Source: an uncultured Thermomicrobiales bacterium
GTDB taxonomy: Bacteria > Chloroflexota > Chloroflexia > Thermomicrobiales > UBA6265
Assembly (NCBI GenBank): GCA_902806345.1
Contig: CADCWF010000102.1
Span: 1-32,838 of the forward strand
Direction of reading: 5' to 3'
Length of the DNA stretch: 32,838 nucleotides
A program made the translations under genes and the position numbers. The notes beneath the pieces were generated by a model. That model was not told where the DNA came from and ran no database searches. It saw only the letters and a program-made list of their open reading frames with translations. Shown one piece after another: positions 1 through 23,039 of the stretch. Numbering within the stretch: the first letter of the stretch is position 1; each line of letters starts with the position of its first letter.

Positions 1-456
1 GACCGGGCGGAGGCGTTGGGGCGAGGACTCCGGGCCAGGCCGTTCGACCTCGTCCTCTGCCACGCCGACATCCACGCCGCCAACGTCCTGGTCGGCGCCG
101 ACGGCCGCATCCACCTGGTCGACTGGGACGGCCCCCTCCTCGCCCCGCCCGAGCGCGACCTGCTCTTCGTGGTCGGGTCCCAGATCGCGCGGGCGGTCGC
201 GCCGCGGGAGGAGGCGCTGTTCTTCGAGGGGTACGGGCCGGTCGCGATCGACCCGGCCGCCCTGGTCTACTACCGCTACGAGCGGATCGTCGAGGACCTC
301 GGCGAGTTCGCCAAGAGCATCTTCCTCGATCCGAGCCTGGGCGAGGCGACGAAGGCGGCCGCCGCCGAGCTGACGATGGGCTTCTTCGCCCCCGGCGGCG
401 ACCTCGACCGCGCCGAACTCGTGACGCTCCCCGAGCTCCCGGGGCCGCGGGACTAA
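1..456 (+). CDS. Aminoglycoside phosphotransferase family protein, C-terminal part (5' truncated by window edge)
   Basis: The frame is open from base 1 to a TAA at 454-456, so only the C-terminal ~150 residues are present. The segment [11 protein letters not shown] followed by HLVDWDG is the Brenner-type catalytic loop plus the metal-binding D of the protein-kinase-like APH fold: the D of HADIHAAN is the catalytic base and the D of VDWD binds Mg. The following PPERDLLFV stretch is typical of APH and spectinomycin-phosphotransferase-like proteins. The family transfers phosphate from ATP to a small-molecule hydroxyl, either an antibiotic or a metabolite such as choline or homoserine. The substrate cannot be told from this fragment. 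The protein should be cytoplasmic. The gene converges with the serine hydrolase on the other strand. Confidence 0.85.
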
Positions 457-779
457 CGCTCCGGTGTGCCGACACCGGCAGCGGGTGCGGCGAGGCAACC
501 ACCGGGTGATCCGGAGTTCGGGTGAGCCCCCGGTATCCCGCCGACAATTCCCCCCGCCATCGCCGCTGCCTGTCGGGCATCGGCGGGAGCGGGGAATGAC
601 TCGGGCAACCGGTGCACGATGGCTTCAGCCAGTATCCGTAGGAATCGGAGGCGGCGGCGCCGCCCGGCCGGGGTCAGGACCGGCGCTTCCGTCGCTCGCC
701 GGAGAGATCGGAGATGGGGGGTTGCCTTCCCGATGCCTCCCGCACCTCTCATCGGCGCCGGCTGAGTCACTGCCGAGAA
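457..779. other. Intergenic region between convergent genes
   Basis: 323 bp between the APH-like and serine hydrolase stop codons. Short open frames on both strands are R/P/G-rich and have no recognisable domain. The only structure seen is the imperfect hairpin at 547-597. Confidence 0.5.
547..597. terminator. Possible bidirectional terminator hairpin
   Basis: ATTCCCC (547-553) can pair with GGGGAAT (591-597), and CCGCC (554-558) with GGCGG (582-586), across a 4-nt bulge. It lies between two convergent stop codons. There is no T-tract, so the call is weak. Confidence 0.25.
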
Positions 780-1862
780 TCAAGTGGGGCGCGGGACTTC
801 GTTGCGTGCGGCAAACGCATCCACGAGTGCAAAGGCGAGCTCCATTCCCAGGTCTGGCCGGTCCCGATTGACCAGTGCCACGCTCGTGAGTCGGTGCCCG
901 ACGACGTCGGGAACGTGGAACGCCGCCGCGGAGTATCCCGGTCCCCCGCCGGCGTGTCCCGCCACCAGGCCATAGGGCGACGCGAGGTCGACCATCAGGC
1001 CAAGGCCGTAGGCGGGCCGAACGACCAGTGGATGTCTATCCGGCACCGGCACCGCCGTCAGCATCGCCGCCATCGATGGCTCGTCGAGCAGCCGCCCGGT
1101 CAGCAAGTGCTCCATGGCGCGGGCAAGATCGGGCGCGGTCGAGATCGCCACCCCGTGCGCCACCCAGCCGGGATGGTAGCGGTGCGAGACATCGCGCAGG
1201 TCTCCGTCGTCGTCGAGTGCGGCGCTGTAGCCGGGGGTGAGGGCGTGGCCATCGGCGAGCGACTCGGCCACGAAGGTCTGCCGCAGTCCCGCCGGCCGAA
1301 AGACCAGATCGGCCAGGGCGTCGGGCATCGGCTGTTGGGTGATTCGTTCGATCACCAAGCGCACCAGGAGGAACCCGATGTTCGAGTAGGCCCATGAACG
1401 TCCCGCGGCGAATCGAACCCCGAGCCGGAGCGTCCGGGTCAGGAACTGATCGCTCGTCCAGGGCGCGCCGGGGTCGGCCCGCAGCGCCTCGTTGTACTCC
1501 GCCATCGATCCGTAGTCGGGCAGCCCGGCCGTGTGGTTGAGCACCTGCCGGAGGGTGACAGGCTCGTCCACGGGCGTCTCGGGCAGGATGGCCTGGAGCC
1601 GGTCATCCAGTCCGAGGTGGCCCTGCTCGGCGAGCCGAAGGACCGCGATTGCGAGGAATGTCTTGGTGATACTGTAGGCGTAGAATCGCGCCTCTGGGTC
1701 GAGTGGCTCGGTCCCCTCCAGATTGAGGTGGCCGACAGCGGCCACGAGCGCCGGCCGGCCGTCGACGGTCAGTGCCACAACTGCTCCGGGGGTACGCGAC
1801 TCCCGGAGCGCCGCGGCAACCGCCGTCACGAGAACCTTCCGGGTTGTGTCGCTTCGACTCAT
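780..1862 (-). CDS. Serine hydrolase, class C beta-lactamase/penicillin-binding-protein-like
   Basis: 360 residues. The three active-site motifs of the family are visible: S64-I-T-K67 (nucleophile and general base), Y159-S160-N161, and H303-A-G near the C-terminus, which replaces the KTG of true beta-lactamases. HxG is usual for the esterase/D-aminopeptidase/carboxypeptidase branch. There is no signal peptide, so a cytoplasmic hydrolase acting on esters or peptides is more likely than an antibiotic-resistance enzyme. The start ATG (1862-1860) was chosen because homology-like sequence begins there. The same frame stays open upstream into the permease region, but that part is shadow sequence. 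The gene is co-directional with the ABC importer genes and starts 125 bp after the last permease, so it may be the last gene of that operon. Confidence 0.85.
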   Translation of the reverse strand: MSRSDTTRKVLVTAVAAALRESRTPGAVVALTVDGRPALVAAVGHLNLEGTEPLDPEARFYAYSITKTFLAIAVLRLAEQGHLGLDDRLQAILPETPVDEPVTLRQVLNHTAGLPDYGSMAEYNEALRADPGAPWTSDQFLTRTLRLGVRFAAGRSWAYSNIGFLLVRLVIERITQQPMPDALADLVFRPAGLRQTFVAESLADGHALTPGYSAALDDDGDLRDVSHRYHPGWVAHGVAISTAPDLARAMEHLLTGRLLDEPSMAAMLTAVPVPDRHPLVVRPAYGLGLMVDLASPYGLVAGHAGGGPGYSAAAFHVPDVVGHRLTSVALVNRDRPDLGMELAFALVDAFAARNEVPRPT

Positions 1863-1987
1863 GCCGGGCGACCCCGCGGGAGGAGAGCTGGAACGTCGGA
1901 GCAGCGAGGTTCGCTCCCCGAGGTCGTTGCGGGACCCCCCGCGCTCACGATTCTGATCGGGGCGCTGGAGAGCGCCGGATTCGGCAT

Positions 1988-2848
1988 CTACCCCTTGACC
2001 GCCCCCGCCACCGCCCCGTAGACCATGTACTTCTGGACGAACAGGAAGAAGACGAAGGTCGGCAGCATCGCGAGCGTCGCCGCCGCCATCAGGCTGCCCC
2101 AGTCCGTCTGGAACTGCTGCATGAACATCTGGATCCCGACCGGGATCGTCATCGTCTCCTCGTCCCGGAGGAAGATGCTGGCGATCAGGTACTCGTTGTA
2201 CGAGAAAAGGAACGAGAAGATCGTCACCGCCGCGACCCCCGGCCCGGAGAGCCGCAGCACCACCCGCCAGAAGGCCGCGAAGCGGGAGGCCCCGTCGAGC
2301 ATTGCCGCCTCCTCCAGCTCCCGCGGGATGGCGTCGAAGAACGCCTTGAACATCCAGGTCGCGAACGGCAGGTGGAGCACCGCGTAGAGCAGGATCACCG
2401 AGGTCCGGGTGTTGACCAGCCCCAGGTTGCGGAACAGGATGAAGAGCGGGATCAGGGTCAGGATCAGGGGGAACATCTGGACCATCAGCAGCAGCCGCGA
2501 GTAGCCGGTGGCCGCCCCGGAGCGGTAGCGCGACAGCGAGTAGCCGGCCAGCGCCGCCGCGGCGATCGTCAGCGCGGTGCCGCCGAGGGCGATCGCGAAC
2601 GAGTTGAGGAAGTAGGTCCAGAACGGGGTCCGCTCGGTCAGGTACGCGTAGTTGGCGATCGAGAGACCCTCCGGCAGCAGCCGACCACCGGCCAGGATCT
2701 CCGCCGTCGGCTTGAACGAGTTGAGGACCATCGCGATGATCGGCAGGTTGACGACGACCACGATCGCCGCCAGCAGCGCCGAGAGCAGCCACCGCCCGTT
2801 GTCGCTCTGCCGGCGCCCCGGCGCGGCCATGGGCATCGAGACCGCCAT
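1988..2848 (-). CDS. Carbohydrate ABC transporter permease (MalG type)
   Basis: 286 residues with about six membrane helices, the first at residues ~20-40. The cytoplasmic EAA loop, which docks the ATPase, is visible as ELEEAAMLDGAS with a following R-rich segment. The protein ends in a short VKG tail, as is usual for MalG-type (CUT1) permeases. It forms the membrane channel with the MalF-type permease encoded just upstream. Start ATG at 2848 is preceded by GGGAGGAGG at suitable spacing; an in-frame ATG six codons earlier lies before that site and is less likely. The operon contains no ATPase gene, so a shared MsmK/UgpC-type ATPase encoded elsewhere is presumed. The sugar is unknown. Confidence 0.93.
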   Translation of the reverse strand: MAVSMPMAAPGRRQSDNGRWLLSALLAAIVVVVNLPIIAMVLNSFKPTAEILAGGRLLPEGLSIANYAYLTERTPFWTYFLNSFAIALGGTALTIAAAALAGYSLSRYRSGAATGYSRLLLMVQMFPLILTLIPLFILFRNLGLVNTRTSVILLYAVLHLPFATWMFKAFFDAIPRELEEAAMLDGASRFAAFWRVVLRLSGPGVAAVTIFSFLFSYNEYLIASIFLRDEETMTIPVGIQMFMQQFQTDWGSLMAAATLAMLPTFVFFLFVQKYMVYGAVAGAVKG

Positions 2849-2991
2849 CGTTGCCTCCTCCCGCATAGTCCGTCTCGTGGTGCGCCGAGCCGGTCTTGCC
2901 CGGTGCCGCGCCCGGTCCCTTTGGGCCGGGCCGCCTCCCCGGGCTCGGCCGCGAAGCGGCCGGACCCTCTCCCGACCTGCCGTCGGTCCCC

Positions 2992-3921
2992 CTACCGCTC
3001 GTCCGCCTCTTGCCGCCGCAGCAGCACCAGCGCCAACACCATCAGGATCAGCATGCTGAGGAAGGCAATCGCCGAGCCGAGCCCGACGTCGTTGCGGGTG
3101 AAGGTGTACTTGTAGGCCAGCACGATCAGGTTCTCGGTCGCGTTCGACGGACCGCCCTGGGTCAGCAGCCACGGCGTCTCGAAGTCGTTCACGCTCCAGA
3201 TCGTCATCAGGATCCAGAGCACCACCGAGATCCCCGCGATCTGCGGCAGGGTGATGTCGCGGAAGCTCTGCCAGCGCCCCGCGCCGTCGATCTCGGCCGC
3301 CTCGTAGAGGTCGCGGTCGATGCTCTGCAGGGCCGCCAGGCAGGAGACCATCATGAACGGGAAGGAGCGCCAGATCTTGATCATGATCACCGAGAAGATC
3401 GCCGTATCGCCCGACCCCAGGAAGTAGATCGGGCCGAGCCCGACGAGCCCCAGCGCCTGGTTGAACAGCCCGTTCTGGTCGGCGATCATCCACCGCCAGC
3501 TCACGATCGAGACGATCGACGGGATGATCCACGGCAGCAGCAGCGCCACCCGGAAGAAGCCCCGGCCCGGCACGTCCTTGTTCAGCAGCAGCGCCAAGCC
3601 GAGCCCGACGACGTAGCTGCCGATCACGTTGCAGACCGCGAACAGGGCGCTGAACTGGAGCGCGTAGCGGACGTCGGGCATCCGCCACAGCGCCGCGTAG
3701 TTGGCCAACCCGACGAAGTCGCCGGCCTTCAGCAGCGACCCGTCACGCAGGCTGTAGACGAAGCCGCTGGCGAACGGGTAGAGGTTGATCAGCAGGATCA
3801 GCGCCAGCGACGGCACGAACAGCGCGTAGGGCAGGGGATCGAGCCGGCGCCGGCCGCCGCCGCTGCCCGACGCCACAACCCGGTCGCTCCGGCGCCCGAG
3901 AGCATCGGCCCGAACTCCCAT
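2992..3921 (-). CDS. Sugar ABC transporter permease (MalF/UgpA type)
   Basis: 309 residues. A ~25-residue basic, Gly/Arg-rich N-terminus is followed by six predicted membrane helices starting at LPYALFVPSLALILLINLYP. The EAA motif is seen as YEAAEIDGAGRWQSFRDITL at about residue 210-230. The sequence DFETPWLLTQGGP is typical of CUT1 MalF-like permeases. The ATG at 3921 has GGAGGGGAG just upstream. The gene lies between the binding protein (70-bp gap holding a dispersed repeat) and the MalG-type permease (143-bp gap), all on the minus strand. The three together form an importer lacking its own ATPase. Confidence 0.93.
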   Translation of the reverse strand: MGVRADALGRRSDRVVASGSGGGRRRLDPLPYALFVPSLALILLINLYPFASGFVYSLRDGSLLKAGDFVGLANYAALWRMPDVRYALQFSALFAVCNVIGSYVVGLGLALLLNKDVPGRGFFRVALLLPWIIPSIVSIVSWRWMIADQNGLFNQALGLVGLGPIYFLGSGDTAIFSVIMIKIWRSFPFMMVSCLAALQSIDRDLYEAAEIDGAGRWQSFRDITLPQIAGISVVLWILMTIWSVNDFETPWLLTQGGPSNATENLIVLAYKYTFTRNDVGLGSAIAFLSMLILMVLALVLLRRQEADER

Positions 3922-3947
3922 GGCTCCCCTCCGCTGCCGTCGCCGTG

Positions 3948-3990
3948 CCCCCTCCCCCGCGCATCGGGAGAGGGGGGTGGGGGTGAGGGC
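3948..3990 (-). repeat. 3'-end hairpin repeat, copy 1
   Basis: Read on the minus strand, GCCCTCACCCCC follows the TAA stop of the binding-protein gene with no gap. A C/T-rich run and an imperfect hairpin (GGGAG at 3966-3970 with CTCCC at 3952-3956) come next. It belongs to the six-copy family described in the findings. It may fold at the transcript 3' end and lower expression of the downstream permeases relative to the binding protein. Confidence 0.65.
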
Positions 3991-5289
3991 TTACCCGACG
4001 ATCTGGGCCAGCCGCTCCTCGGCCTTCTGCATCGACTCCGCGACGGCCCGGCCCTGGAGCAGGTCCTGGGCCAGCGTCTGCAGCACGCCCTCGCCCTCGA
4101 CCTCGTTGAGGACCGGGAAGATGCCCTCGGCCTTCGACCCCGTCCCCTGGCCGACCGGCACCCAGTTCTCGATGATGAACCGCAGGTTCTCGTTGTCGTC
4201 GAAGAAGGGGTCGTCGGCGATCGACTGCCGGACCGGGATTTGAGTCGTCCGTCCCTCGGTCCACAACGGCAGCAGGTGGTCGGACCACCACATCAGGAAC
4301 TGCTTGGCCTCCTCCTTGGCCTCGCTTTGCTCGTAGAGCATCACGTTGTTGACCCAGGAGACCGTGCCCTTGTCGCCGTGGGGGCCGCTCAGCGGCGCCA
4401 TCAGCCCGATCTGGTCGGCGATCTCGGGCAGCCGCCCTTCGAGACCGGGGTTGCTCAGGATCATCGCCGCATCGCCTTGGGCGAACGCCTTCAGCGCGTC
4501 GTCGCCCGAGTAGCCGGCGCTGGCCGGGTGGACGGCGCCGGCGGCGACGAGGTCGGCGAAGAACTGCAGCGCCTCGACGTTCCGCTCGTCCATCAGGTTC
4601 AACTGGCGCTCGGGCGTGAAGAGACCGCCGGCGTTGTTGGCGAAGAAGGACAGCATGTGGTGGACGCCGCCGTTCTCGCCGCCCGAGACGACGTAGCCGT
4701 ACCGCTCGTCGCCGGAAACCGCCTCGGCGGCGGCGGCGAACTCCTCCCAGGTCGTCGGCGCTTCGACCCCGGCCTCCTCCAGCAGATCGCGCCGGTAGTA
4801 GAGGACCCGGATGTCGATCGCCCACGGCAGCGCGATCTGGTGGTCGTCGAAGCGGAGCCGCTCGACGGTGCCGGGGAGGAAGTCCGCGAGGGTGCCGCTG
4901 CTCTCCCATTCGGCGACGATGTCGTCGACCGCGGCGACGGCGCCCTGGTCGTAGAACTGGACCGACTGGTAGGCGGCGCCGGTGCTGACGTCCGGCGCGG
5001 TGCCGGCGCCGATCGCGGTCGTGAACGTCTGGTACCAGTTGGCCCACGGGGTCGAGCGGTACTCGGCGGCGATCCCCGGGTGCTCCTCGTTGAACTGCGT
5101 CACCAGCCGGCCGCCGGTGTCGATGTACTCCGGCGGCCCCCAGACCATGTCCCAGAACTCGAGCGCCACCGCGTCCTGCGCCCGCGCCCGGCCGCCGAAC
5201 CGGCGCCCGGCCAGGCCGGATGCGCCGAGGGCCGCCGCACCCTTGACCAACGTCCGGCGGTCCATCCCGCCGCGGCCTCGCGTTGCCAT
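3991..5289 (-). CDS. Extracellular sugar-binding protein of ABC importer 1
   Basis: 432 residues, about the usual length for CUT1 (family 1) solute-binding proteins. The N-terminus has MDRRTLVKGAAALGASGLAG and then ARAQD, a twin-arginine (Tat) signal with likely cleavage near residue 38. The mature start VALEFWDMVWGPPEY fits the family, and aromatic residues that usually line the sugar site are frequent. It captures substrate outside the membrane and delivers it to the two permeases encoded downstream. ATG 5289 has GGGAGGAC 5 nt upstream. An internal ATG at the ninth codon (MDRR) is an alternative and would leave a standard Tat signal. The ligand cannot be read from the sequence. Confidence 0.92.
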   Translation of the reverse strand: MATRGRGGMDRRTLVKGAAALGASGLAGRRFGGRARAQDAVALEFWDMVWGPPEYIDTGGRLVTQFNEEHPGIAAEYRSTPWANWYQTFTTAIGAGTAPDVSTGAAYQSVQFYDQGAVAAVDDIVAEWESSGTLADFLPGTVERLRFDDHQIALPWAIDIRVLYYRRDLLEEAGVEAPTTWEEFAAAAEAVSGDERYGYVVSGGENGGVHHMLSFFANNAGGLFTPERQLNLMDERNVEALQFFADLVAAGAVHPASAGYSGDDALKAFAQGDAAMILSNPGLEGRLPEIADQIGLMAPLSGPHGDKGTVSWVNNVMLYEQSEAKEEAKQFLMWWSDHLLPLWTEGRTTQIPVRQSIADDPFFDDNENLRFIIENWVPVGQGTGSKAEGIFPVLNEVEGEGVLQTLAQDLLQGRAVAESMQKAEERLAQIVG

Positions 5290-5709
5290 GTCGTCCTCCC
5301 GCTACGCTGCGTGAGTCAGAGTTCCACGGGATCGAATGTTCGCCGCTCCTCGCCGTCACCTCCCTCCTGATGGTTTCCCGGAGGCAGCACGATCCGGACC
5401 ACCACCGCACGACTCCCGAACGCCCAGGGTGGGCGGGGAGGCCGAGGTCTCGGGAGAGACCGCCACCTAGGCTATCGAGCGCCCGCACCGAATCTCCGGC
5501 CCAACGGGTGGTCGGCGATTGCTCGCTCCCCGCCTCAGAGGGCAAGGGGAGAGACGGCGGCCCACCGGAACCGGTTTGGGTACCCAAAACAGCGCCGACT
5601 TCGGGGTCAACCGGGCCGGCAACGCCCGCACTCGGGCCGCCCTTCGCATGTCCGCCATGCCCGGCCCCGGCCCACGGCAGGAGTCAGCTACGACCCATCC
5701 GGGGCTCGT
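5290..5709. other. Upstream region of ABC importer 1
   Basis: About 420 bp without a supported gene. It should contain the importer promoter, but no convincing -35/-10 pair was found on the minus strand. A 14-bp perfect palindrome, TTTGGGTACCCAAA, lies at 5575-5588, about 290 bp upstream of the binding-protein start. One such palindrome is expected by chance in a window of this size. Confidence 0.4.
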
Positions 5710-5880
5710 CTCGGTCTGCCTGCCGCGGGTCTGCTCATTCGACTCGGCAAGCAACGGTCGCACCACCTGGAACGTGACGACGCTCGGGTTCAGCACGCGG
5801 ACCTAAAACGAGCGCCCATACACCGGGTGCGGCACGATCCGATCCAGGTCGGTGAAATCGTCGCCGCCCTCGCCAATCGT
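5710..5880 (-). pseudogene. Remnant of a DUF6194-like gene with an in-frame amber codon
   Basis: The minus-strand frame reads DLDRIVPHPVYGRSF, then TAG (5805-5803), then VRVLNPSVVTFQVVRPLLAE. As I recall the DUF6194 family, it has a C-terminal pattern of HPVY, a few residues, W, then V-x-NP and LL. The TAG stands where the family has a tryptophan, consistent with a single TGG-to-TAG change. The N-terminal part is missing: the frame merges upstream into the end of the THI5-like gene. I see a decayed, 5'-truncated gene. The family assignment is from memory of the motif, not from a search. Confidence 0.45.
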
Positions 5881-5920
5881 CACGATCCGGCAGCGCCGAG
5901 CCGATGGCTTGGGGTCGGGG

Positions 5921-6973
5921 TCAGCCCGCCTCGGGCGTCGCCGCCCCGACCGTCGGCAGCAGGTCCGCTCGGTAGGCCGCCGCCACGTCCAGCCCGGTCG
6001 GGATCAACCCCCGCTCGGTCATCCAGGTCGCATAGGCGTCCCACCGCGCGGGCTCCTGCGTCCCGAACGCCACCCCGCCCGCCGTCCATGCCGGGATCAC
6101 GAGCGCTAACCCCTCCTCCTCGACCGCCCGGTCGAGGTCCGGGCTGGCCGCGGCGAGCGCATCGAGCGCCGCCGCCGGTGCGGCCGCCGCCGCCTCGTAG
6201 CCGCGTCGCGCCGCCGCCAGGAACCTGCGCACCGTCTCGGCGTCGTCCGCCGCCGTCTGCTCGCTCGCGACGAGGACCAGCTCGTAGTAGGGCGGCACCC
6301 CCCATTCCTCGACCCGCAGCAGTGAGACCGGGTAGCCCTCCCGCTCGGCCAGGATCGTCTCGTGGGTCCAGTAGGCGCCCAAGGCGCCATCGGCGCGACC
6401 GGAGATGACGGCCGGCACGAGGTCGAAGCCGACGTTGACCAACTCGACGTCGGCCATCCCCAGCCCGTCGGTCTCCAGCATCGTCGCCAGGAACGCCTCC
6501 TGGCTCGGGATCCCGGGGGAGGCCACCGTCTTGCCGCGGAGGTCGGCCGGCCGCACGATCCCCGAATCCGCGAGGACCATGATCCCCAGCAGCGGCTGCT
6601 GCACCAGCGCCGCCACCGAGACGACCGGCACCCCAGCCGCGCGGGCCAGCAGGACATCGGTCTGGTAGGAGATGCCGAAGGTGTCGCGCCCGGCCCCGAC
6701 CGTCTGCAGCACGGTCGTCGGGTCGGACGGGGTGTATGCGTCGACCGCCAGCCCCTCGTCGGCGAACCAGCCGCGCTCCAGCGCCAGGTAGAGCCCGGCG
6801 TGGTTCGCGTTCGGGTACCAGTCCAGTGCCAGCGTCACCGGCGTTTCCTGAGCCCCCCCCCGGGCGCCCACCGCTCGGTCGGCAGGGAGCGCGGCGAGGG
6901 CCGCTCCGGCGGCCCCGGCGACGACGCGGCGGCGGGAGAGGCGAGGGGAGGGGAGCGACGGAACGCGGGGCAT
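5921..6973 (-). CDS. THI5/NMT1-like (SsuA-fold) ABC substrate-binding protein, TPP-riboswitch controlled
   Basis: 350 residues. A Tat-type signal is visible (SRRRVVAGAAGAALAALPA at residues 13-31). The mature protein opens with LALDWYPNANHAGLY (48-62), the signature of THI5/NMT1 domains as in ThiY, which binds the pyrimidine precursor of thiamine (formylaminopyrimidine/HMP). The SsuA-type two-lobe domain runs to about residue 310. ATG 6973 has AGGAGG 5 nt upstream. The leader carries a TPP riboswitch (7060-7157) and a promoter (7178-7206), so thiamine pyrophosphate should repress it. This supports uptake of a thiamine precursor. No permease or ATPase gene follows; downstream is only a gene remnant. 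The partners must be encoded elsewhere. Confidence 0.9.
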   Translation of the reverse strand: MPRVPSLPSPRLSRRRVVAGAAGAALAALPADRAVGARGGAQETPVTLALDWYPNANHAGLYLALERGWFADEGLAVDAYTPSDPTTVLQTVGAGRDTFGISYQTDVLLARAAGVPVVSVAALVQQPLLGIMVLADSGIVRPADLRGKTVASPGIPSQEAFLATMLETDGLGMADVELVNVGFDLVPAVISGRADGALGAYWTHETILAEREGYPVSLLRVEEWGVPPYYELVLVASEQTAADDAETVRRFLAAARRGYEAAAAAPAAALDALAAASPDLDRAVEEEGLALVIPAWTAGGVAFGTQEPARWDAYATWMTERGLIPTGLDVAAAYRADLLPTVGAATPEAG

Positions 6974-7023
6974 CGGGGCCTCCTGGGTGCCGGCTCGGTC
7001 CGGGACCGGCCGGAAACGACGAA

Positions 7024-7049
7024 CGCACCGCCGGGAGCCGGACGGTGCG
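7024..7049 (-). terminator. Hairpin in the TPP-riboswitch expression platform
   Basis: On the minus strand CGCACCG (7049-7043) pairs with CGGTGCG (7030-7024) in a 7-bp stem. It is followed by a T-richer stretch, TTCGTCGTTTCC. It lies between the aptamer and the start codon. It could be the conditional terminator, or part of a structure that hides the ribosome site at 6979-6984. Which mode applies is not decided. Confidence 0.45.
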
Positions 7050-7059
7050 AGCCAGAGGC

Positions 7060-7157
7060 CAATCGGTCCCCACGCGGGGATTACCCCGTTCGGGTGCGAC
7101 GGTCGGGGGCGGTCTCGGCCCCCCTCTCAGCCCGGCTCCCCGAGCTCCCGTGTCGGC
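7060..7157 (-). ncRNA. TPP riboswitch (THI-box) aptamer
   Basis: Read on the minus strand, the conserved THI-box elements appear in order. CGGGGAGCC is followed by GGGCTGAGAGG (pyrimidine-sensing core CUGAGA). A variable G/C hairpin comes next, then CACCCGA, then CGGGG-TAAT-CCCCG (P5 with its UAAU loop), then GCGTGGGGA (pyrophosphate-sensing core GCGnnGGGA). P3 is very short. P1 is not obvious in the primary sequence. The aptamer lies ~87 nt upstream of the start codon of a THI5-like thiamine-precursor-binding protein, which matches its expected regulon. Confidence 0.87.
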
Positions 7158-7177
7158 GGTCTTCAATTGTCGCTCGG

Positions 7178-7206
7178 AGCCTACGGCGCGTCCCTGACCG
7201 CGTCAA
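7178..7206 (-). promoter_or_regulatory. Promoter of the TPP-controlled gene
   Basis: On the minus strand: TTGACG (7206-7201), 17-bp spacer, TAGGCT (7183-7178). The predicted start near 7171 gives a leader of about 198 nt containing the whole riboswitch. The architecture matches the iclR promoter in this window. Confidence 0.6.
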
Positions 7207-7960
7207 GGCCGACGTGGCCCGATCAGCCTCCGGCGCGACATCCCGGTGATCGCGACACGGTTTCCGGCTGGTCGGTGGGGCGACCGTCGCGCGCTGCCGC
7301 CCCTCCTGCTCGTGGAACCCGCGCTTGCGTCCCCGAGCAGCACCCACGGCGAGGAGGGGTCGGGGAGGGGGACTCCCCCGTCAACACGCGCGATCCAGCC
7401 GGATTCCGTATCGGGTTCGGCCCCCGACGCCGAGAGGAGAACCTCGACGCGACGCCGCCCCCGGCCCGTGGGATGGACGGGCGGAGGGCGGCGGTAGCGT
7501 CGATCCCGGCGGACGGTCGGCGGCGCGGGGGAAGGGTTCGCGTCGTGGACCGTCCTGGACCGGGTGCGGGAGGCGGGGCGAAGCGGGGACGGCTCCCTGT
7601 CGCGGGGATCGGTCCGAACGAAACCCGGTCGGGACTCGGGTCTCCCCGGATCGGGTCCGCCCACGGCGGGGAACCGCCGGCGGGATGCGGATCCGGGGCG
7701 GCCGGTCCCGCTCGTCCGCCGAAACCGCGCGGCTGGGCGGGAACCGCCGGCGGGTGCGGGGTGCGCGGTGCGGGACGGAAGCCGGCGGGATCTCGGACGC
7801 CGGTTGCGGCCGGGTCCGTCTCGGCGGGCGGGGCGGCGGGGCGAGCGAGCGGGAGACGCCCGGCGGGAGCGGGGAGCGGGGAGCGGAGCGAACGGGTCGC
7901 GGATCGAGTCATCCGTCGGGACGAGCGGGAGGCGTCCCGACAGGCGCGTAAGGGGTCGGG
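7207..7960. other. Gene-poor, very G/C-rich stretch
   Basis: About 750 bp. Long open frames exist on both strands, but their products are P/R/G-rich without domains or a convincing ribosome site, as expected from base composition. A 16-bp direct repeat, GGGAACCGCCGGCGGG, occurs twice about 70 bp apart (near 7667 and 7738). Nothing else could be assigned. Confidence 0.45.
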
Positions 7961-8566
7961 TCAGGAACTGGCGGCGATCCGGTTCGTCTGGCGGACGCCC
8001 ACGGTGCGTGGCAGGGCACCCCGGCCGGCGGCCATCGCCGCGCGGCCGACCGCCCCGGCCGTCCGCTGCCGCGACGGGGAGATCGTCTCCGATCGCCGGT
8101 TGCGGGCGGCCAACAGGGCCGCACCGCTGACGAGCCCAATCGCGGCGAACAGGGCGAGCTCGTCGGAGGGGGCGAAGGGCGCCGCCGCGACTGGCGCGGC
8201 ATCGACCCGGAGCACGGAGCCGGTGCTGCCGTCGACCGATAGCCGCAGCTCGTCACCAGGCCGCAGCGCATCGGGAGGAACCGCGACCCCGTCGCGGAGC
8301 ACCTCGGCGCGGCCGCCGAGCGGGAATGCGACCGGGTCGGCTGCGCCGACCTCCCGCACCGCCAGGTGGCCGTCGGCGACCGCGAGCAGGGTGCCGGCGA
8401 CGGCGACCGGGACGCCCTCGGCGATGGCGGCGGGAGCGGCCGGCAGGGTCGCCGGGTCGTTGACGGCCAAGGTGCCGCCGACGACGGTCATGAAGAGGAC
8501 GAAGGTAACGAAGGGGGTCAGGAACCCCCGCATGGCCGCGAACCGCGAACCGGATCGGATGGACAT
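7961..8566 (-). CDS. Hypothetical protein with two membrane helices and a small beta-rich middle domain
   Basis: 201 residues from ATG 8566, which has GGGAGG about 8 nt upstream. One helix lies near the N-terminus (RGFLTPFVTFVLFMTVVGGT, ~residues 13-32) and another near 140-160 (ELALFAAIGLVSGAALLAA), followed by a basic tail. Between them is a ~90-residue segment (VAGTLLAVADGHLAVREVG, then LRPGDELRLSVDG) with the alternating pattern of a small beta-barrel, as in OB-like or DUF5666-type domains. This resemblance is weak. The middle domain would face the outside if both ends are cytoplasmic. A promoter with repeated operator-like sites lies ~360 bp upstream (8931-8958). Function unknown. Confidence 0.65.
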   Translation of the reverse strand: MSIRSGSRFAAMRGFLTPFVTFVLFMTVVGGTLAVNDPATLPAAPAAIAEGVPVAVAGTLLAVADGHLAVREVGAADPVAFPLGGRAEVLRDGVAVPPDALRPGDELRLSVDGSTGSVLRVDAAPVAAAPFAPSDELALFAAIGLVSGAALLAARNRRSETISPSRQRTAGAVGRAAMAAGRGALPRTVGVRQTNRIAASS

Positions 8567-12696: not shown

Positions 12697-14061
12697 ATGA
12701 CCCGGACCCCTCGACTCGCCAACCGGACCGCGACCCGCCGGCGGCTGATCCAGTTCGGCGCCGCCGCCGCGGCGGCCGGCATCGTGCTGCCCGCCGCCCC
12801 GGCCCTCGCCCAGACCCCGGCCGCCTCCGACCTCTCCGGCACGCTCCGCGGGATGAGCTGGGAAACCGAAGCCGAGATGCGGAAGTGGTTCCGGCACACC
12901 GAGGAGTTCTTCGCCACCCGCTACCCAAACCTGACCCCGGAGCTCGAGTACGGCACCGCCTGGGCCGACTACTGGACCAAGCTCCAGACGGCCGTCGCCG
13001 GCGGCGCCCAGTTGGACATGTGCTGGATGCACGACAGCCGCGCCCAGTCCTACGCCTCGCTCGGCCTGATCCAGCCCCTCGACCCCTACATCGCCGCCGA
13101 CCCGCCGCAGGAGTGGCCCGACGCCTACTACCCGTCGCAGGTCGACGCCTTCCGCTACAACGACCAGCAGTTCGCCATCCCCTACGACTGGGCGACCGGC
13201 GGCTTCTACGTCAACCTCGACGTGCTGGAGCGGGCCGGGGTCGAGGTGCCGACCGTCGACTGGACCTTCGATCGGCTGCTCGAGGCCGGCCTGGCGATCA
13301 AGGCCAGCGCCCCCAACCCCGACGACTCCTGGGGCTTCTTCCTCCAGGTCACCTCCCACAACACCGGCTGGATCGTCAAGAGCTTCGGCGGCGAGCAGAT
13401 CACCGCCGACCCCCTGACCTCCCACTTCGACGATCCGAACACCATCGCCGCCTACCAGTTCCTCTACGACGCGATCAACACCCACGGGGTCATGCCCAAC
13501 CCGGCCGGGATGCAGGGCCTCGGCCTGGACCAGCAGACCGCCTTCGCCAGCGGCCTCCTCGGGATCATGGCCAGTCTCAACGACGAGGCCTTCGTCTTCG
13601 GCGAGATCGTCGGCGACAAGGCCGAGTGGACCGTCGCCCCGACCCCCAGCGGCGTCGACGGCCGCTACCAGTTCGCCGGCGGCTCCGGCTTCTCGATCCC
13701 GACGACGGCGGCCTTCCCCGAAGTCGCCTACGAGTACATCAAGTTCATGGCGACCGACCCGGCGAACCTGCCGACCACCGCCGAGATGGGCTCGATGTTC
13801 GTCTCCCGGATGGACGCCTGGGAAGACGCCATGCCGGACCCGACCCAGCTCGACCCCGAGGTCTACAAGGCGGTCTTCTACGACCTCGGCGTCGAGGACG
13901 CCACCGTGCCCCTCTACTTCCCCGGCTATCAGCAGTGGGACAGCTCCATCTACGTCCGGCACATGGACCGCCTCTGGACCGGCGCCACCGACGACGTCGC
14001 CGGCGTCCTCCAGCAGGTCCACGAGGAGACCCAGGCGTTCCTGGACACGATCGAGCAATAA
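12697..14061 (+). CDS. Extracellular sugar-binding protein of ABC importer 2
   Basis: 454 residues, usual for CUT1 binding proteins. A twin-arginine signal (ATRRRLIQFGAAAAAAGIV, residues ~11-29) ends near APALAQ (residue ~38). The mature protein has the family layout, with a first lobe containing YWTKLQTAVAGG and a mid-protein segment FAIPYDWATGGFYVN. It is rich in Trp and Tyr, as expected for a sugar-binding cleft. ATG 12697 is preceded by CAGGAGGGACGACG. It follows the permeases by 208 bp and ends with TAA directly followed by a 3'-end repeat. It would feed the importer of the IclR-controlled locus. The ligand is unknown; the downstream isomerases and dehydrogenase suggest a sugar, glycoside or polyol. 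Confidence 0.92.
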   Translation: MTRTPRLANRTATRRRLIQFGAAAAAAGIVLPAAPALAQTPAASDLSGTLRGMSWETEAEMRKWFRHTEEFFATRYPNLTPELEYGTAWADYWTKLQTAVAGGAQLDMCWMHDSRAQSYASLGLIQPLDPYIAADPPQEWPDAYYPSQVDAFRYNDQQFAIPYDWATGGFYVNLDVLERAGVEVPTVDWTFDRLLEAGLAIKASAPNPDDSWGFFLQVTSHNTGWIVKSFGGEQITADPLTSHFDDPNTIAAYQFLYDAINTHGVMPNPAGMQGLGLDQQTAFASGLLGIMASLNDEAFVFGEIVGDKAEWTVAPTPSGVDGRYQFAGGSGFSIPTTAAFPEVAYEYIKFMATDPANLPTTAEMGSMFVSRMDAWEDAMPDPTQLDPEVYKAVFYDLGVEDATVPLYFPGYQQWDSSIYVRHMDRLWTGATDDVAGVLQQVHEETQAFLDTIEQ

Positions 14062-18514: not shown

Positions 18515-19954
18515 ATGCCCCGGCGCCGCATCGACGCCTCCCACGTCGTCGCCTTCCAGGGCGGCGGCCACCGCTACCTCAAGGACGGCGTCGTCGTCAC
18601 CGACGGGAACGCCATCGTCCACGTCGGCCCCGCCGGCTCCTACGCCGGCCCCGCCGACGAGACCATCGACGGCGCCGGCATGCTCCTCACCCCCGGCTTC
18701 GTCAACACCCACGCCCACCTCTACGAGTCCCCCCTCGACAAGTCCTTCGTCGAGGACATGGGCCGCCGCCAGTTCTACGGGTCCGGCCTCTTCGAGTACC
18801 TCCCCGTCCGCTCCGCCGCCATGTCCGACGAAGACGCCCACGCCTGCCTCGCCTTCTCGATGGCCGAGCTGCTCCGCACCGGCACCACCACCGTCATGGA
18901 GATCGGCTCCTACGGCGACGAGGCCGTCCGCCAGGCCGAGAAGTTCGGGATGCGCCTCTACATGGGCCTCGGCTACCGCTCCGGCCGCTGGTACACCGAC
19001 GACGGCAAGGCGGTGAAATACGCCTGGGACGAAGCCGCCGGGCTCCAGGGCCTCGACCGCGCCGTCGCCTTCATCGAGCGGCACGACGGCAGCCAGAACG
19101 GCCGGATCAAGGGTTTTCTGTCCCCGGCCCAGGTCGACACCTGCACCGAGGACCTGCTGCGCCGCTCCCGCGACGCCGCCACCCAGCTCGGCGTTCCCAT
19201 GGCGCTGCACACCTCGCAGTCGGTCAACGAGTTCCTGGAGATGACCCGCCGCCACGGCCAGACCCCGATCGAGTGGCTCCGGGACATCGGCTTCCTCGGC
19301 CCGGACGTGATCCTCGGCCACGCCATCGTCCTCGCCCCCGGAAGCTGGACCAACTGGCCCGGCGACGACGTCGGCATCCTGGCCGACACCGGCACCAACG
19401 TCGCCCACGCCGTCTGGGTCTTCGCCCGCCGCGGCATCGCCATGGAGAGCTTTGCGCGCTACCTCGCCCGCGGGGTGAACATGACCCTCGGCACCGACAC
19501 CGCCCCCCAGTCGATGCTCGAAGGGCTCCGCTACACCGCGGTCGTCTCCAAGCTCGTCGACCGCCAGACCGAGGTCGCCACCGCCGCCGACGTCTTCAAC
19601 GCCGCCACCCTCGGCGGCGCCAAGGCCCTCGGCCGCGACGACCTCGGCCGGATCGCCCCCGGCGCCAAGGCCGACCTCCTCCTCTGGGACGCGGCCAGCC
19701 TCTTCATGGCCCCGCTGCGCGATCCCCTCCGCAACCTCGTCTACAGCGCCCAGGCCGAGGACCTGCGGACGGTGCTGATCGACGGCGAGGTCCGGATGCG
19801 CGACCGCCAAATCCCCGGCGTCGACATCGCCGCCCTCGCCCGCGATCTCCAGGCCGCCGGCGAGCGGATGTGGGCCAACGTCGACCGGGGCGATTGGGCC
19901 GGCCGCTCGATCGACGAGCTCGCCCCCCAGACCTTCCCGCCCTACGCCGGGTAG
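18515..19954 (+). CDS. Amidohydrolase, ATZ/TRZ (chlorohydrolase/deaminase) type
   Basis: 479 residues. The metal-dependent amidohydrolase signature is complete: H66-A-H68 (NTHAHLYE), H232 (MALHTSQS), H269 (ILGHAIVL) and D328 (TLGTDTAP). The C-terminus has GAKADLLLWD and the VLIDGEVRM strand of the composite beta-domain. The family hydrolyses C-N or C-Cl bonds in ring compounds (aminopyrimidines, guanine, adenosine derivatives, s-triazines). The many family members differ in substrate, and none can be assigned here. It is cytoplasmic, with no signal peptide. ATG 18515 has GAGGAG 12-17 nt upstream. It is transcribed away from the receiver-gene pair and appears to be a single-gene unit. Confidence 0.92.
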   Translation: MPRRRIDASHVVAFQGGGHRYLKDGVVVTDGNAIVHVGPAGSYAGPADETIDGAGMLLTPGFVNTHAHLYESPLDKSFVEDMGRRQFYGSGLFEYLPVRSAAMSDEDAHACLAFSMAELLRTGTTTVMEIGSYGDEAVRQAEKFGMRLYMGLGYRSGRWYTDDGKAVKYAWDEAAGLQGLDRAVAFIERHDGSQNGRIKGFLSPAQVDTCTEDLLRRSRDAATQLGVPMALHTSQSVNEFLEMTRRHGQTPIEWLRDIGFLGPDVILGHAIVLAPGSWTNWPGDDVGILADTGTNVAHAVWVFARRGIAMESFARYLARGVNMTLGTDTAPQSMLEGLRYTAVVSKLVDRQTEVATAADVFNAATLGGAKALGRDDLGRIAPGAKADLLLWDAASLFMAPLRDPLRNLVYSAQAEDLRTVLIDGEVRMRDRQIPGVDIAALARDLQAAGERMWANVDRGDWAGRSIDELAPQTFPPYAG

Positions 19955-20115
19955 CGAGGGCGAACGGCCTCGCCGCGCCCCTCCGGCTAGGGATCGCCCG
20001 CGTGCGTTCTGGCACCGTTCCCCTGGACGGGCGAGCGGTGACTCCGAGGCGAAACTGACTGGGCCGCTCGTTCGTCACAGGTGCCGGAGGGGTGTGCCCG
20101 CCAACGGGGCCGCTC

Positions 20116-20144
20116 TTGACGCCGGGCCGGCGGCACCCCATGCT
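20116..20144 (+). promoter_or_regulatory. Possible promoter of the Cys-rich protein gene
   Basis: TTGACG (20116-20121), 17-bp spacer, CATGCT (20139-20144). The -10 is weak. The leader would be ~77 nt. Confidence 0.35.
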
Positions 20145-20227
20145 GCCACCGTCCCCGCACGGTTTCGCTCAGGGCCCCGATTCGACACGTCGGGGCCGCG
20201 TCCGCACCACGAGGAGGGGTTCTCGCT

Positions 20228-20758
20228 ATGGACAGCAAGACGTTCGACGCGCTGGTGCGCGGCGTCGGCTCGCACCGTACCCGCCGCGATGCTCTGAAGG
20301 GCATCGCCGCCGGGCTCTTCGGCCTCGGCGCCGCTCGTGGCGCAGCCGCCCAGTCGCGGCTCGCGAGCTGCAACGACAGCTGCCAGCGCAGCGAAGATTG
20401 CAACGCCGGGCTCCGCTGCAACAGCAATCGCCGCTGCGTCGCCATCCCCGACAGCCGGGACTCCTGCCGGCAAGACATCGACTGCCGCTCGGACTTCGAA
20501 ATCTGCCAGAACCGCCGCTGCGTCAACCGGGAGACCTGCAACAACAACGAGTGCAACCGCAACGACGACTGCCGGCGGAACGAGCGCTGCCGCAACGGCC
20601 GCTGCGTGAATCAGGACGAGTGCAACCGCAACGACGACTGCCGACGGGACGAGCGCTGCCGCAACGGCCGCTGCGTCCAGCGCGACGAGTGCACCCGCAA
20701 CGACGACTGCCCGCGCGACCAGCGCTGCCGCCGAGGCCGTTGCCGAGAGCGCAACTAG
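20228..20758 (+). CDS. Tat-exported Cys-rich repeat protein
   Basis: 176 residues. The N-terminus has a twin-arginine signal, RTRRDALKGIAAGLFGLGAA (17-36), with likely cleavage after GAAAQ (~42). The mature ~134 residues hold 22 cysteines. Residues 109-176 are three copies of a 23-residue unit, C-x5-C-x5-C-x4-C, each reading roughly CNRNDDCRRDERCRNGRC. Two looser units precede them (52-70, 80-98). The DDC/RC-x3-RC layout recalls small disulfide knots of secreted proteins such as EB or dickkopf-like modules. The mature part is also very rich in Arg, Asn and Asp. Tat export fits a protein that folds, or gains disulfides or cofactors, before export. ATG 20228 has GAGGAGG upstream. A strong terminator follows at 20782. 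Function unknown. Confidence 0.85.
   Translation: MDSKTFDALVRGVGSHRTRRDALKGIAAGLFGLGAARGAAAQSRLASCNDSCQRSEDCNAGLRCNSNRRCVAIPDSRDSCRQDIDCRSDFEICQNRRCVNRETCNNNECNRNDDCRRNERCRNGRCVNQDECNRNDDCRRDERCRNGRCVQRDECTRNDDCPRDQRCRRGRCRERN
20552..20758 (+). repeat. Three 69-bp in-frame tandem repeats in the Cys-rich gene
   Basis: Each unit encodes 23 residues (starting at Cys 109, 132 and 155). Units 1 and 2 are nearly identical at DNA level and unit 3 diverges, which suggests recent expansion by tandem duplication. Confidence 0.8.
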
Positions 20759-21213
20759 CGCCAAGCGGACATCCGATTTAAGGGGAGGCCGCCGGCGGCG
20801 GCCTCCCCCGTTTCGTGGCCAAATCTGGAGGGCGATCGAGGCCGGCGCCGGCCCGAGCGGGCGGGGAATGCGACAACCGCCTCGCGGAGCAACGGGGCTC
20901 GCCCACCGGCGGCAGCGTCGGCACCTCGTAGCCCGTCGGACTGCGGTTCGATCGCCGCGGAATCGGTCCGGCCTGCCGCTGGGCTGATCCAGAGCCCGCT
21001 CTCCCGCTCCCGCCATTGACCCGAAGCTCGGAAGCTCGTATCTGGGAGTGGGAAGGGCGCGCCCCTCGCCCGCCGCGCCCGATCGGCACCCGGATCCATC
21101 AGGCCAGCCGCCAACGGCGGGCGCAACCGGTCCGAGCGGTGGCGAGGCGCCATTCGGAACCTCCGGCCTGGCCGGCCCCTATACTCCCGGGCGAGACCGA
21201 GGAGGAACCCCGG
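20759..21213. other. Intergenic region before the Uma2 gene
   Basis: 455 bp holding the terminator at 20782-20812 and no supported gene. Possible promoter elements for the next gene are TTGACC-17 bp-TATCTG (21016-21044), or an isolated TATACT at 21180-21185 without a good -35. Confidence 0.4.
20782..20812 (+). terminator. Intrinsic terminator after the Cys-rich gene
   Basis: GGGGAGGCCGCC (20782-20793) pairs perfectly with GGCGGCCTCCCC (20797-20808) over a 3-nt loop. CGTTTCGT follows. The 12-bp stem is strong and the T-tail short, as with the other terminators here. Confidence 0.8.
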
Positions 21214-21960: not shown

Positions 21961-22764
21961 TCAGGCCGACCCCGCGGCCGGCGTCGCGGAAATCGGTGTC
22001 ACGGTCTCGCCGGCCCGCTCCACCACCCGCTCGAACCCGTCCGGCGAGACGCGGACCGGGTCGCGGAAGGGGCTGTCGAGGGCGGCGACGAGCGCCAGCA
22101 GCAGCGCCACCGTCGCCGCCAGCGCCGCCACCATCACCGCCTGGGCGAGGTGGTTCTCGACCCCGAACAGGTACGAGAAGCCGACCGTCACCGCGCCGCC
22201 GGCGATCAGGACCACCCACATCAGCTCCGGCAGGCCGCGCAGGCTCGCCAGCAGCCGCTCCCCCCGGGCGTCCTCCATCTCGTCCAGTTCGGCCAGCGAG
22301 GCGGCGTACGGGGCCAGTCCCCCGATCGGCCCCGCCGCCAGCTGGGCGTAACGGCGGTACAACTCGTCCATCGCCGCGGCGGCGACCGGGTCAGGCGCCT
22401 CGCGCCGCTCCATCGCCGCCCACTCGCGCCCGACCACCGCCCGCCCGTAAGCCAGCGCCGCCTCCTGGAGCTCGCCCCGCTGCGGATCGGGGAAGGCCTC
22501 CGCCAGCCGGACCAGGTCGAACAGCGACGCCGCCTCGGCAATCTCCGCGCTCCGCGCCTCCTCGAAGTCGTCCCAGGCGGCGACGACGAGCTGGCCGAGG
22601 ATGACGCCGTAGACGACGCCGAGCGTGGCGTAGACCGCCGACGCGACGGCGGTGTGGTCGGTCAGCACGGCGTACGGCACCAGCCGGCGGACGACGACCA
22701 GCCCCGCCAACGCCAGGACGACGCTGCCGACGACGGTGACGACGACCTCGGTGTTGGCCCCCAT
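21961..22764 (-). CDS. DUF4239-type (bestrophin-like) membrane protein
   Basis: 267 residues. Two N-terminal membrane helices (VVVTVVGSVVLALAGLVVVR, then ASAVYATLGVVYGVILGQLV) are followed by a ~120-residue helical soluble region (WDDFEEARSAEIAEAASLFD to ~195). Two more helices come next (LMWVVLIAGGAVTVGFSYLF and AVMVAALAATVALLLALVAA), then a short cytoplasmic tail with DSPFRDPVRVSPDGFE. This layout and the closing D-SPF-x-G/D-x-V-x-V/I motif fit DUF4239, a bestrophin-like family of presumed channels or stress proteins. ATG 22764 was taken as start; an ATG seven codons upstream is equally possible. The upstream open frame lacks membrane character. Confidence 0.8.
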   Translation of the reverse strand: MGANTEVVVTVVGSVVLALAGLVVVRRLVPYAVLTDHTAVASAVYATLGVVYGVILGQLVVAAWDDFEEARSAEIAEAASLFDLVRLAEAFPDPQRGELQEAALAYGRAVVGREWAAMERREAPDPVAAAAMDELYRRYAQLAAGPIGGLAPYAASLAELDEMEDARGERLLASLRGLPELMWVVLIAGGAVTVGFSYLFGVENHLAQAVMVAALAATVALLLALVAALDSPFRDPVRVSPDGFERVVERAGETVTPISATPAAGSA

Positions 22765-23039
22765 CCGCCCACGCCCCCGACCCATGCCCCCGACTGGCCC
22801 CGGTGCCGCAACCCTAGCACGCCCGCACCGCGCCCCGACCGCGCCCGGTCGTTCCCGAACCCGGCGATGCCTGCCGACGCCGTGCCGGTCGTCGGCATTG
22901 CACACCCCTCTCGCCCCGGTCCGGGTCGGGCTCGACGACCGGGTGATGGAGCGATCCGGACGCTCGATACGGACTTCGGGCGATCGCCGGCGAGATCGGA
23001 CGGCGGGGGTGCCCCACTCCTGGCGCAGGCGGCGAGGGT

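What the first reader, a model, noticed from the sequence alone, without database searches (positions are those of the whole stretch)
20228..20758. Tat-exported disulfide-type repeat protein with a recently expanded 23-residue unit
Seen: twin-arginine signal, then 22 Cys in 134 residues. Three 69-bp repeats encode C-x5-C-x5-C-x4-C units, with the first two nearly identical at DNA level. It is Arg/Asn/Asp-rich, has a strong ribosome site and terminator, and forms a single-gene unit. Known: Tat carries folded proteins. Inference: a pre-folded extracellular protein, perhaps metal-binding, structural or toxin-like; repeat number may vary between strains.
Basis: partly seen in the sequence, partly recalled or inferred. 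Interest (0 to 1): 0.6.

Follow-up and report, generated by a model that had tools for sequence, protein, structure and literature searches.

The report
Exported knottin-like protein from large family
This gene makes a small exported protein probably held together by cysteine bridges, and it is one of about 60 genes in this uncultured bacterium that share one unusual export tag but carry very different cysteine-rich bodies, a pattern reminiscent of animal venom gene families for which I found no description in bacteria of this group.

Summary
In detail: window 20228-20758 (+) encodes a 176-residue protein with a Tat-type leader (residues 1-42) and a body with 22 Cys in 134 residues. Three 69-bp repeats end it (62/69, 55/69, 52/69 identical); a fourth, diverged unit precedes them. 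The body passes Pfam's cut-off only for DUF7107 (unknown function). Each C-x5-C-x5-C-x4-C unit resembles the two-disulfide cystine-stabilised beta-sheet core of knottins and the Dumpy DPY module. The larger finding is the leader, consensus MDxxxFDxLTRxxGxxxxRRxALxGLAAG: a leader-only profile finds about 65 genes in this Thermomicrobiales genome and up to 115 in relatives, few elsewhere in the phylum. Of 55 own-genome members not used as seeds, 47 have bodies over 10% Cys; 97 of 111 Cys-rich bodies have an even Cys count, which favours disulfides over metal sites. In two relatives the same upstream amidohydrolase is followed by 2 and 4 leader genes with different Cys-rich bodies. Most likely this is a disulfide-rich exported or surface protein that leaves by Tat and is oxidised outside; its molecular role (binding, inhibition or structure) is inferred, not shown. 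'Pre-folded' export is not required. Unusual, worth follow-up.

The parts
20228..20758 (+). Tat-leader, Cys-rich CSB/DPY-like repeat protein, 176 aa
   Evidence: ORF; DUF7107 E 1.1e-10, 42.1 bits over cut-off 24.6
20211..20217 (+). ribosome binding site GAGGAGG
   Evidence: sequence; SD-like motifs precede 27 of 39 family members against 2 of 39 in a control stretch
20228..20353 (+). conserved Tat-type leader, residues 1-42 (MDxxxFDxLxRxxGxxxxRR..., AxA-Q)
   Evidence: leader profile A1: 7.9e-20 here, about 65 genes in the genome at E<=1e-3
20369..20437 (+). N-terminal five-Cys module, residues 48-70 (Cys104 may pair with its odd Cys)
   Evidence: all these Cys invariant in orthologues and two own-genome paralogues
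20465..20521 (+). first, diverged four-Cys unit, residues 80-98
   Evidence: C-x5-C-x6-C-x4-C
20549..20617 (+). 69-bp repeat unit 1
20618..20686 (+). 69-bp repeat unit 2 (62/69 identical to unit 1)
20687..20755 (+). 69-bp repeat unit 3; best single match to the Dumpy DPY module (1oig)
20782..20808 (+). GC-rich 12-bp hairpin, possible terminator with weak T tail
   Evidence: fold; not flagged
18515..19954 (+). amidohydrolase gene marking the locus; its relatives in G001 and G014 are also followed by leader genes, with other bodies
   Evidence: Pfam Amidohydro_1; 84-86% protein identity and downstream leader genes

Best explanation
The gene is one member of a lineage-expanded family of Thermomicrobiales (Chloroflexota) proteins that share a conserved Tat leader and carry divergent Cys-rich bodies. 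The leader (MDxxxFDxLTR...SRR) sends the hydrophilic chain through the Tat translocase and is cut after AxA. The body is oxidised outside by DsbA/VKOR-type enzymes into a string of small knots: an N-terminal five-Cys module, then four two-disulfide cystine-stabilised beta-sheet units like the knottin core and the Dumpy DPY module. The result is a small, rigid, protease-resistant protein at or outside the cell surface that most likely acts by binding (surface or matrix contact, or inhibition of foreign enzymes or competitors), with diversity generated by duplication, body divergence and repeat change. Shown: leader family, expansion, association with Cys-rich bodies, orthologues, fold resemblance in a predicted model. 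Inferred: Tat use, cleavage, oxidation order, location, binding role.
For: Leader-only profile finds about 65 own-genome genes at E<=1e-3, up to 115 per genome in the family at E<=0.01, while sister families have 0-2 per genome except one with 14, and a phylum sample of 301 has few. Among non-seed hits RR is present in 112 of 112 and FD in 104 of 112; 47 of 55 own-genome bodies are over 10% Cys, against at most 2.6% in 16 other window ORFs. Of eight leader hits examined outside the order, seven also carry Cys-rich bodies. Leader-independent test: of about 12 Stig1-like genes in the genome at least 11 carry the leader. Even Cys count in 97 of 111 Cys-rich bodies. TatC, VKOR and DsbA present. 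AlphaFold mean pLDDT 81, one beta hairpin per unit; Foldseek superposes a unit on squash inhibitor EETI-II, rmsd 0.5 A over 23 residues, and on DPY 1oig, 1.4 A over 22, both with weak E-values. Two-disulfide CSB peptides fold alone (PMC2659701). All 22 Cys kept in two orthologues. LPxTG-like tails on eight leader proteins of relatives point to the cell surface.
Against: No experiment. Pfam TAT_signal and NCBIfam TAT models do not report this protein. Foldseek E-values are all above 0.1, and the alignment behind the model had four sequences. The DPY match is below Pfam's cut-off. About one in seven leader genes has a Cys-poor body, so the leader is not exclusive to Cys-rich cargo. The seed leaders were chosen with a rule requiring F and RR, so their invariance in A1 is built in. 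MAGs may hold frame errors. No partner or substrate is known.
Confidence: 0.6

Rival explanations
1. Metal carrier: the Cys-rich body binds zinc, copper or an iron-sulphur site in the cytoplasm, folds around it and is exported loaded by Tat, as many Tat cofactor proteins are.
Against: Even Cys count in 97 of 111 Cys-rich relatives; no metallothionein or Fe-S family hit; fold and spacing match disulfide modules; no evident metal gene next door.
Confidence: 0.13
2. Structural or adhesive envelope protein: tandem CSB/DPY-like units form a disulfide-stiffened fibre or coat on the surface, in place of a soluble binder (a narrower version of the main reading).
For: Dumpy DPY units work in a giant extracellular matrix protein (PMC2930355); the cultured relative Thermomicrobium roseum has a protein-dominated cell wall (PMC2615216); LPxTG-like tails on some relatives; giant members up to 1756 aa in G021.
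Against: The T. roseum wall protein is described as rich in Gly, Pro, Glu and Ala, not Cys, and family f5, with 0-2 leader hits, shows the order can do without the family; most members here are short and mutually divergent.
Confidence: 0.3
3. Antagonistic peptides: the family is an arsenal of secreted antimicrobial or enzyme-inhibiting knottins against competitors or predators (another narrower version of the main reading).
For: ICK-like spacing in 37 of 51 own-genome bodies; sub-threshold Toxin_12 hits and one phospholipase A2-type paralogue over cut-off; conserved leader with divergent bodies, tandem arrays.
Against: No immunity genes seen; charges vary (median net -2 in this genome); dN/dS below 1 between orthologues.
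Confidence: 0.25
4. The conserved leader is only common ancestry plus recent duplication, with no special sorting role.
For: Tandem arrays of up to nine genes in 8 kb (G002:C342).
Against: F, D and RR persist while bodies differ (leader identity median 0.375 against 0.23 for bodies with Cys pairs left out), and the same leader-Cys link appears as single copies in distant Chloroflexota.
Confidence: 0.4

Closest known systems
Pfam DUF7107 (PF23416)
   Same: Passes the curated cut-off (42.1 against 24.6 bits); covers pairs of four-Cys units
   Different: A domain of unknown function, gives no mechanism; the leader and N-terminal module are outside it
Dumpy DPY module (PF21164, PDB 1oig)
   Same: Identical C-x5-C-x5-C-x4-C spacing; 22-residue superposition at 1.4 A
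   Different: Below Pfam's cut-off (18.8 against 27); DPY alternates with EGF modules in an insect matrix protein, here units are in direct tandem in a bacterium
Knottins, cystine-stabilised beta-sheet core (squash trypsin inhibitors, Min-23)
   Same: Unit superposes on EETI-II at 0.5 A over 23 residues; the two-disulfide core folds alone (PMC2659701)
   Different: The 23-residue unit has four Cys, so not the three-disulfide knot; no inhibitory loop identified
Conotoxin-type gene families (from general knowledge)
   Same: Conserved leader, divergent disulfide-rich bodies, multigene expansion
   Different: Bacterial, Tat leader instead of Sec signal plus propeptide; function unknown; no homology claimed
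Dickkopf_N (PF04706) and EB module (PF01683)
   Same: Weak matches to the same Cys spacing; the Dkk4 N-terminal region is the first Foldseek row
   Different: Both below cut-off for this protein; Dickkopf_N does pass for the G003 relative

Membership tests
DUF7107 (PF23416) | Pfam gathering score | tested here: met
   E 1.1e-10, 42.1 bits, cut-off 24.6, three stretches
Dumpy DPY module (PF21164) | Pfam gathering score | tested here: not met
   18.8 bits at best for unit 3, cut-off 27
Dumpy DPY module (PF21164) | C-x5-C-x5-C-x4-C spacing and hairpin fold | tested here: met
   (fold from a predicted model)
Knottin / inhibitor cystine knot | six Cys, third disulfide threading the other two | tested here: not met
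   Units have four Cys; full ICK-like spacing occurs in paralogues
Knottin / inhibitor cystine knot | cystine-stabilised beta-sheet core | tested here: inconclusive
   rmsd 0.5 A on EETI-II but Foldseek E 0.3-0.5
Tat substrates | twin-arginine signal with hydrophobic stretch and AxA site | tested here: met
   sequence; RR in 112 of 112 non-seed leader relatives; TatC in genome
Tat substrates | curated TAT_signal models | tested here: not met
   No hit for this protein; one paralogue sub-threshold
Tat substrates | Tat-dependent export | not testable with these tools
   needs experiment
EB module / Dickkopf_N | Pfam gathering score | tested here: not met
   15.8 and 15.4 bits, cut-offs 24.3 and 25
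Metal-binding Cys-rich proteins | bound metal | not testable with these tools
   Cys parity argues against

The most novel reading that the evidence does not exclude
The MDxxxFDxLTR...SRR leader defines a dedicated export class: a sorting signal, perhaps with its own chaperone, that marks disulfide-rich miniproteins for Tat in Chloroflexota, and on which Thermomicrobiales built a fast-changing repertoire of tens to over 100 knottin-like proteins per genome, comparable in gene logic to animal venom families.
Probability: 0.25. Interest if true: 0.82.

Novelty: new variant of a known kind. Interest (0 to 1): 0.6.

Why it matters
Disulfide-rich miniproteins are mostly known from animals, plants and fungi. 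A bacterial lineage with dozens of them per genome behind one conserved Tat leader would give a natural source of stable scaffolds, and a test case for how Tat handles Cys-rich cargo: folded and oxidised inside, or passed as a hydrophilic chain and oxidised outside. The leader motif lets anyone list the whole set from a genome.

Tried and rejected
Single-sequence scan of genome contigs found nothing; the six-row alignment found three named relatives. Rfam: no hit in the window, only chance-level hits around the gene, so no known riboswitch. No sigma-70-like promoter and no upstream motif common to the family (best 8-mers in 5 of 39). NCBIfam gave nothing above cut-off. The three orthologue contigs share no neighbours with the window gene. 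Literature searches found no description of the leader family; the library lacks most subscription journals. Overlapping ORFs 20092-20781 (+) and 20075-21016 (-) have no family hits and were taken as GC-rich chance frames. Cys-Cys distances in the AlphaFold model could not be read, so the disulfide pattern itself is untested.

Full report
OBSERVATION. The ORF at 20228-20758 (+) encodes 176 residues. Residues 1-42 form a Tat-type leader with RR at 19-20 and AxA-Q at the end. The following 134 residues hold 22 Cys; the next densest 134-residue stretch in any frame of the window holds 11, and at a Cys content of 1.2% the binomial chance of 22 or more is about 1e-18. Three 69-bp units lie at 20549, 20618 and 20687, with 62, 55 and 52 of 69 identical bases for pairs 1/2, 2/3 and 1/3. 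A GAGGAGG site precedes the ATG by 10 nt, and a 12-bp hairpin lies 23 nt behind the stop; its T tail is weak and the consensus scan missed it.

THE BODY. Cys positions give a five-Cys N-terminal module (48-70), a diverged four-Cys unit (80-98), one extra Cys (104) and three regular units. Orthologues in the named MAGs L114 (Thermomicrobiales GZL_FP_2_bin.163) and L115 (Thermomicrobiales SJ531) keep all 22 Cys, with dN 0.37-0.42 and dS 0.71-1.06 against the window gene; L116 (uncultured Chloroflexi) has the same body, but its leader is not in frame, perhaps a frame error. Two paralogues in the same genome (G000:C9, C232) have only two units, and a gene in G003 has seven (my count on the sequences), so unit number does vary. 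The body passes Pfam's cut-off for DUF7107 only. The three-unit stretch finds the Dumpy DPY module 1oig first in the PDB (E 0.019, same spacing). AlphaFold on four sequences gave mean pLDDT 81 and a hairpin in every unit. Foldseek put a unit on squash inhibitor EETI-II (0.5 A over 23 residues) and on 1oig (1.4 A over 22), with weak E-values, as expected for such short stretches. Two-disulfide peptides of the CSB type are known to fold alone (PMC2659701).

THE LEADER FAMILY. P0001 already found paralogues whose similarity was concentrated in the leader. The 27 seeds had been picked by a rule requiring F and RR, so I measured hits outside the seeds: RR in 112 of 112, FD in 104 of 112, and bodies over 10% Cys in 47 of 55 (own), 17 of 21 (G021), 25 of 33 (others). 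Sixteen other window ORFs have at most 2.6% Cys, and a Tat-like leader protein at 12697-14061 without MDxxxFD has 0.2%. Of eight hits examined outside the order, seven also carry Cys-rich bodies. As a leader-independent test I searched the genome for Stig1: 18 matches in about 12 genes, at least 11 of them with the leader. Cys counts are even in 97 of 111 Cys-rich bodies, as expected for closed disulfides; shared ancestry inflates this somewhat.

THE LOCUS. The amidohydrolase upstream (18515-19954) is 84-86% identical to one in G001:C541 and one in G014:C391. All three are followed, 195 to about 356 bp later, by leader genes: one here, two in G001, four in G014, with different bodies. The nearest relative of the window gene in G014 lies elsewhere (C86). 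So the place is shared, the leader is shared and the body is not. Tandem arrays occur elsewhere too: six in a row in G003:C294, nine (one partial, one masked) within about 8 kb in G002:C342.

MECHANISM. The genome has TatC, a VKOR and two DsbA-like proteins. Tat is known to accept hydrophilic unfolded chains of 100-120 residues (PMC6708511); this body has 10 large hydrophobic residues in 134. So export before oxidation, then folding outside, is at least as plausible as export of a pre-folded protein. Eight leader proteins of relatives end in an LPxTG-like tail, which places part of the family at the cell surface. What the bodies bind is unknown. Binding or inhibition is my choice because this fold class usually does that (general knowledge); a structural coat is the main rival. 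Metal binding is less likely but open.

NOVELTY. No paper found describes the leader family; the library is partial. The fold class is known and the domain has a DUF number; the combination of a Tat leader, mass expansion and body divergence in a bacterium appears new to me, so I rate it a new variant of a known kind.

Noticed in passing
G000:C130, locus L137 9-590: A leader-bearing paralogue has a phospholipase A2 body over Pfam's cut-off (PLA2G12, 39.5 bits).
   Followed up: partly
L018, L019, L020, L084, L098, L151, L154: Leader proteins with LPxTG-like C-terminal tails plus a hydrophobic stretch, suggesting sortase anchoring in these Chloroflexota.
   Followed up: partly
G021 loci L148, L149, L153, L155, L156: Giant leader proteins up to 1756 residues with 280 Cys, acidic and repetitive, clustered.
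   Followed up: no
L036 (G034) and L047 (G003): Leader plus Cys-rich repeats followed by what look like a phage tail-collar domain and a beta-propeller (read by eye).
   Followed up: no
G002:C342 (L181) 1-8052: Nine leader genes in tandem with repeated sub-motifs, one partial and one partly masked.
   Followed up: partly
window 12697-14061 (+): Ordinary Tat-like leader protein without the MDxxxFD motif and almost without Cys; served as an in-window contrast.
   Followed up: partly
window 21961-22905 (-): Bestrophin-like domain protein.
   Followed up: no
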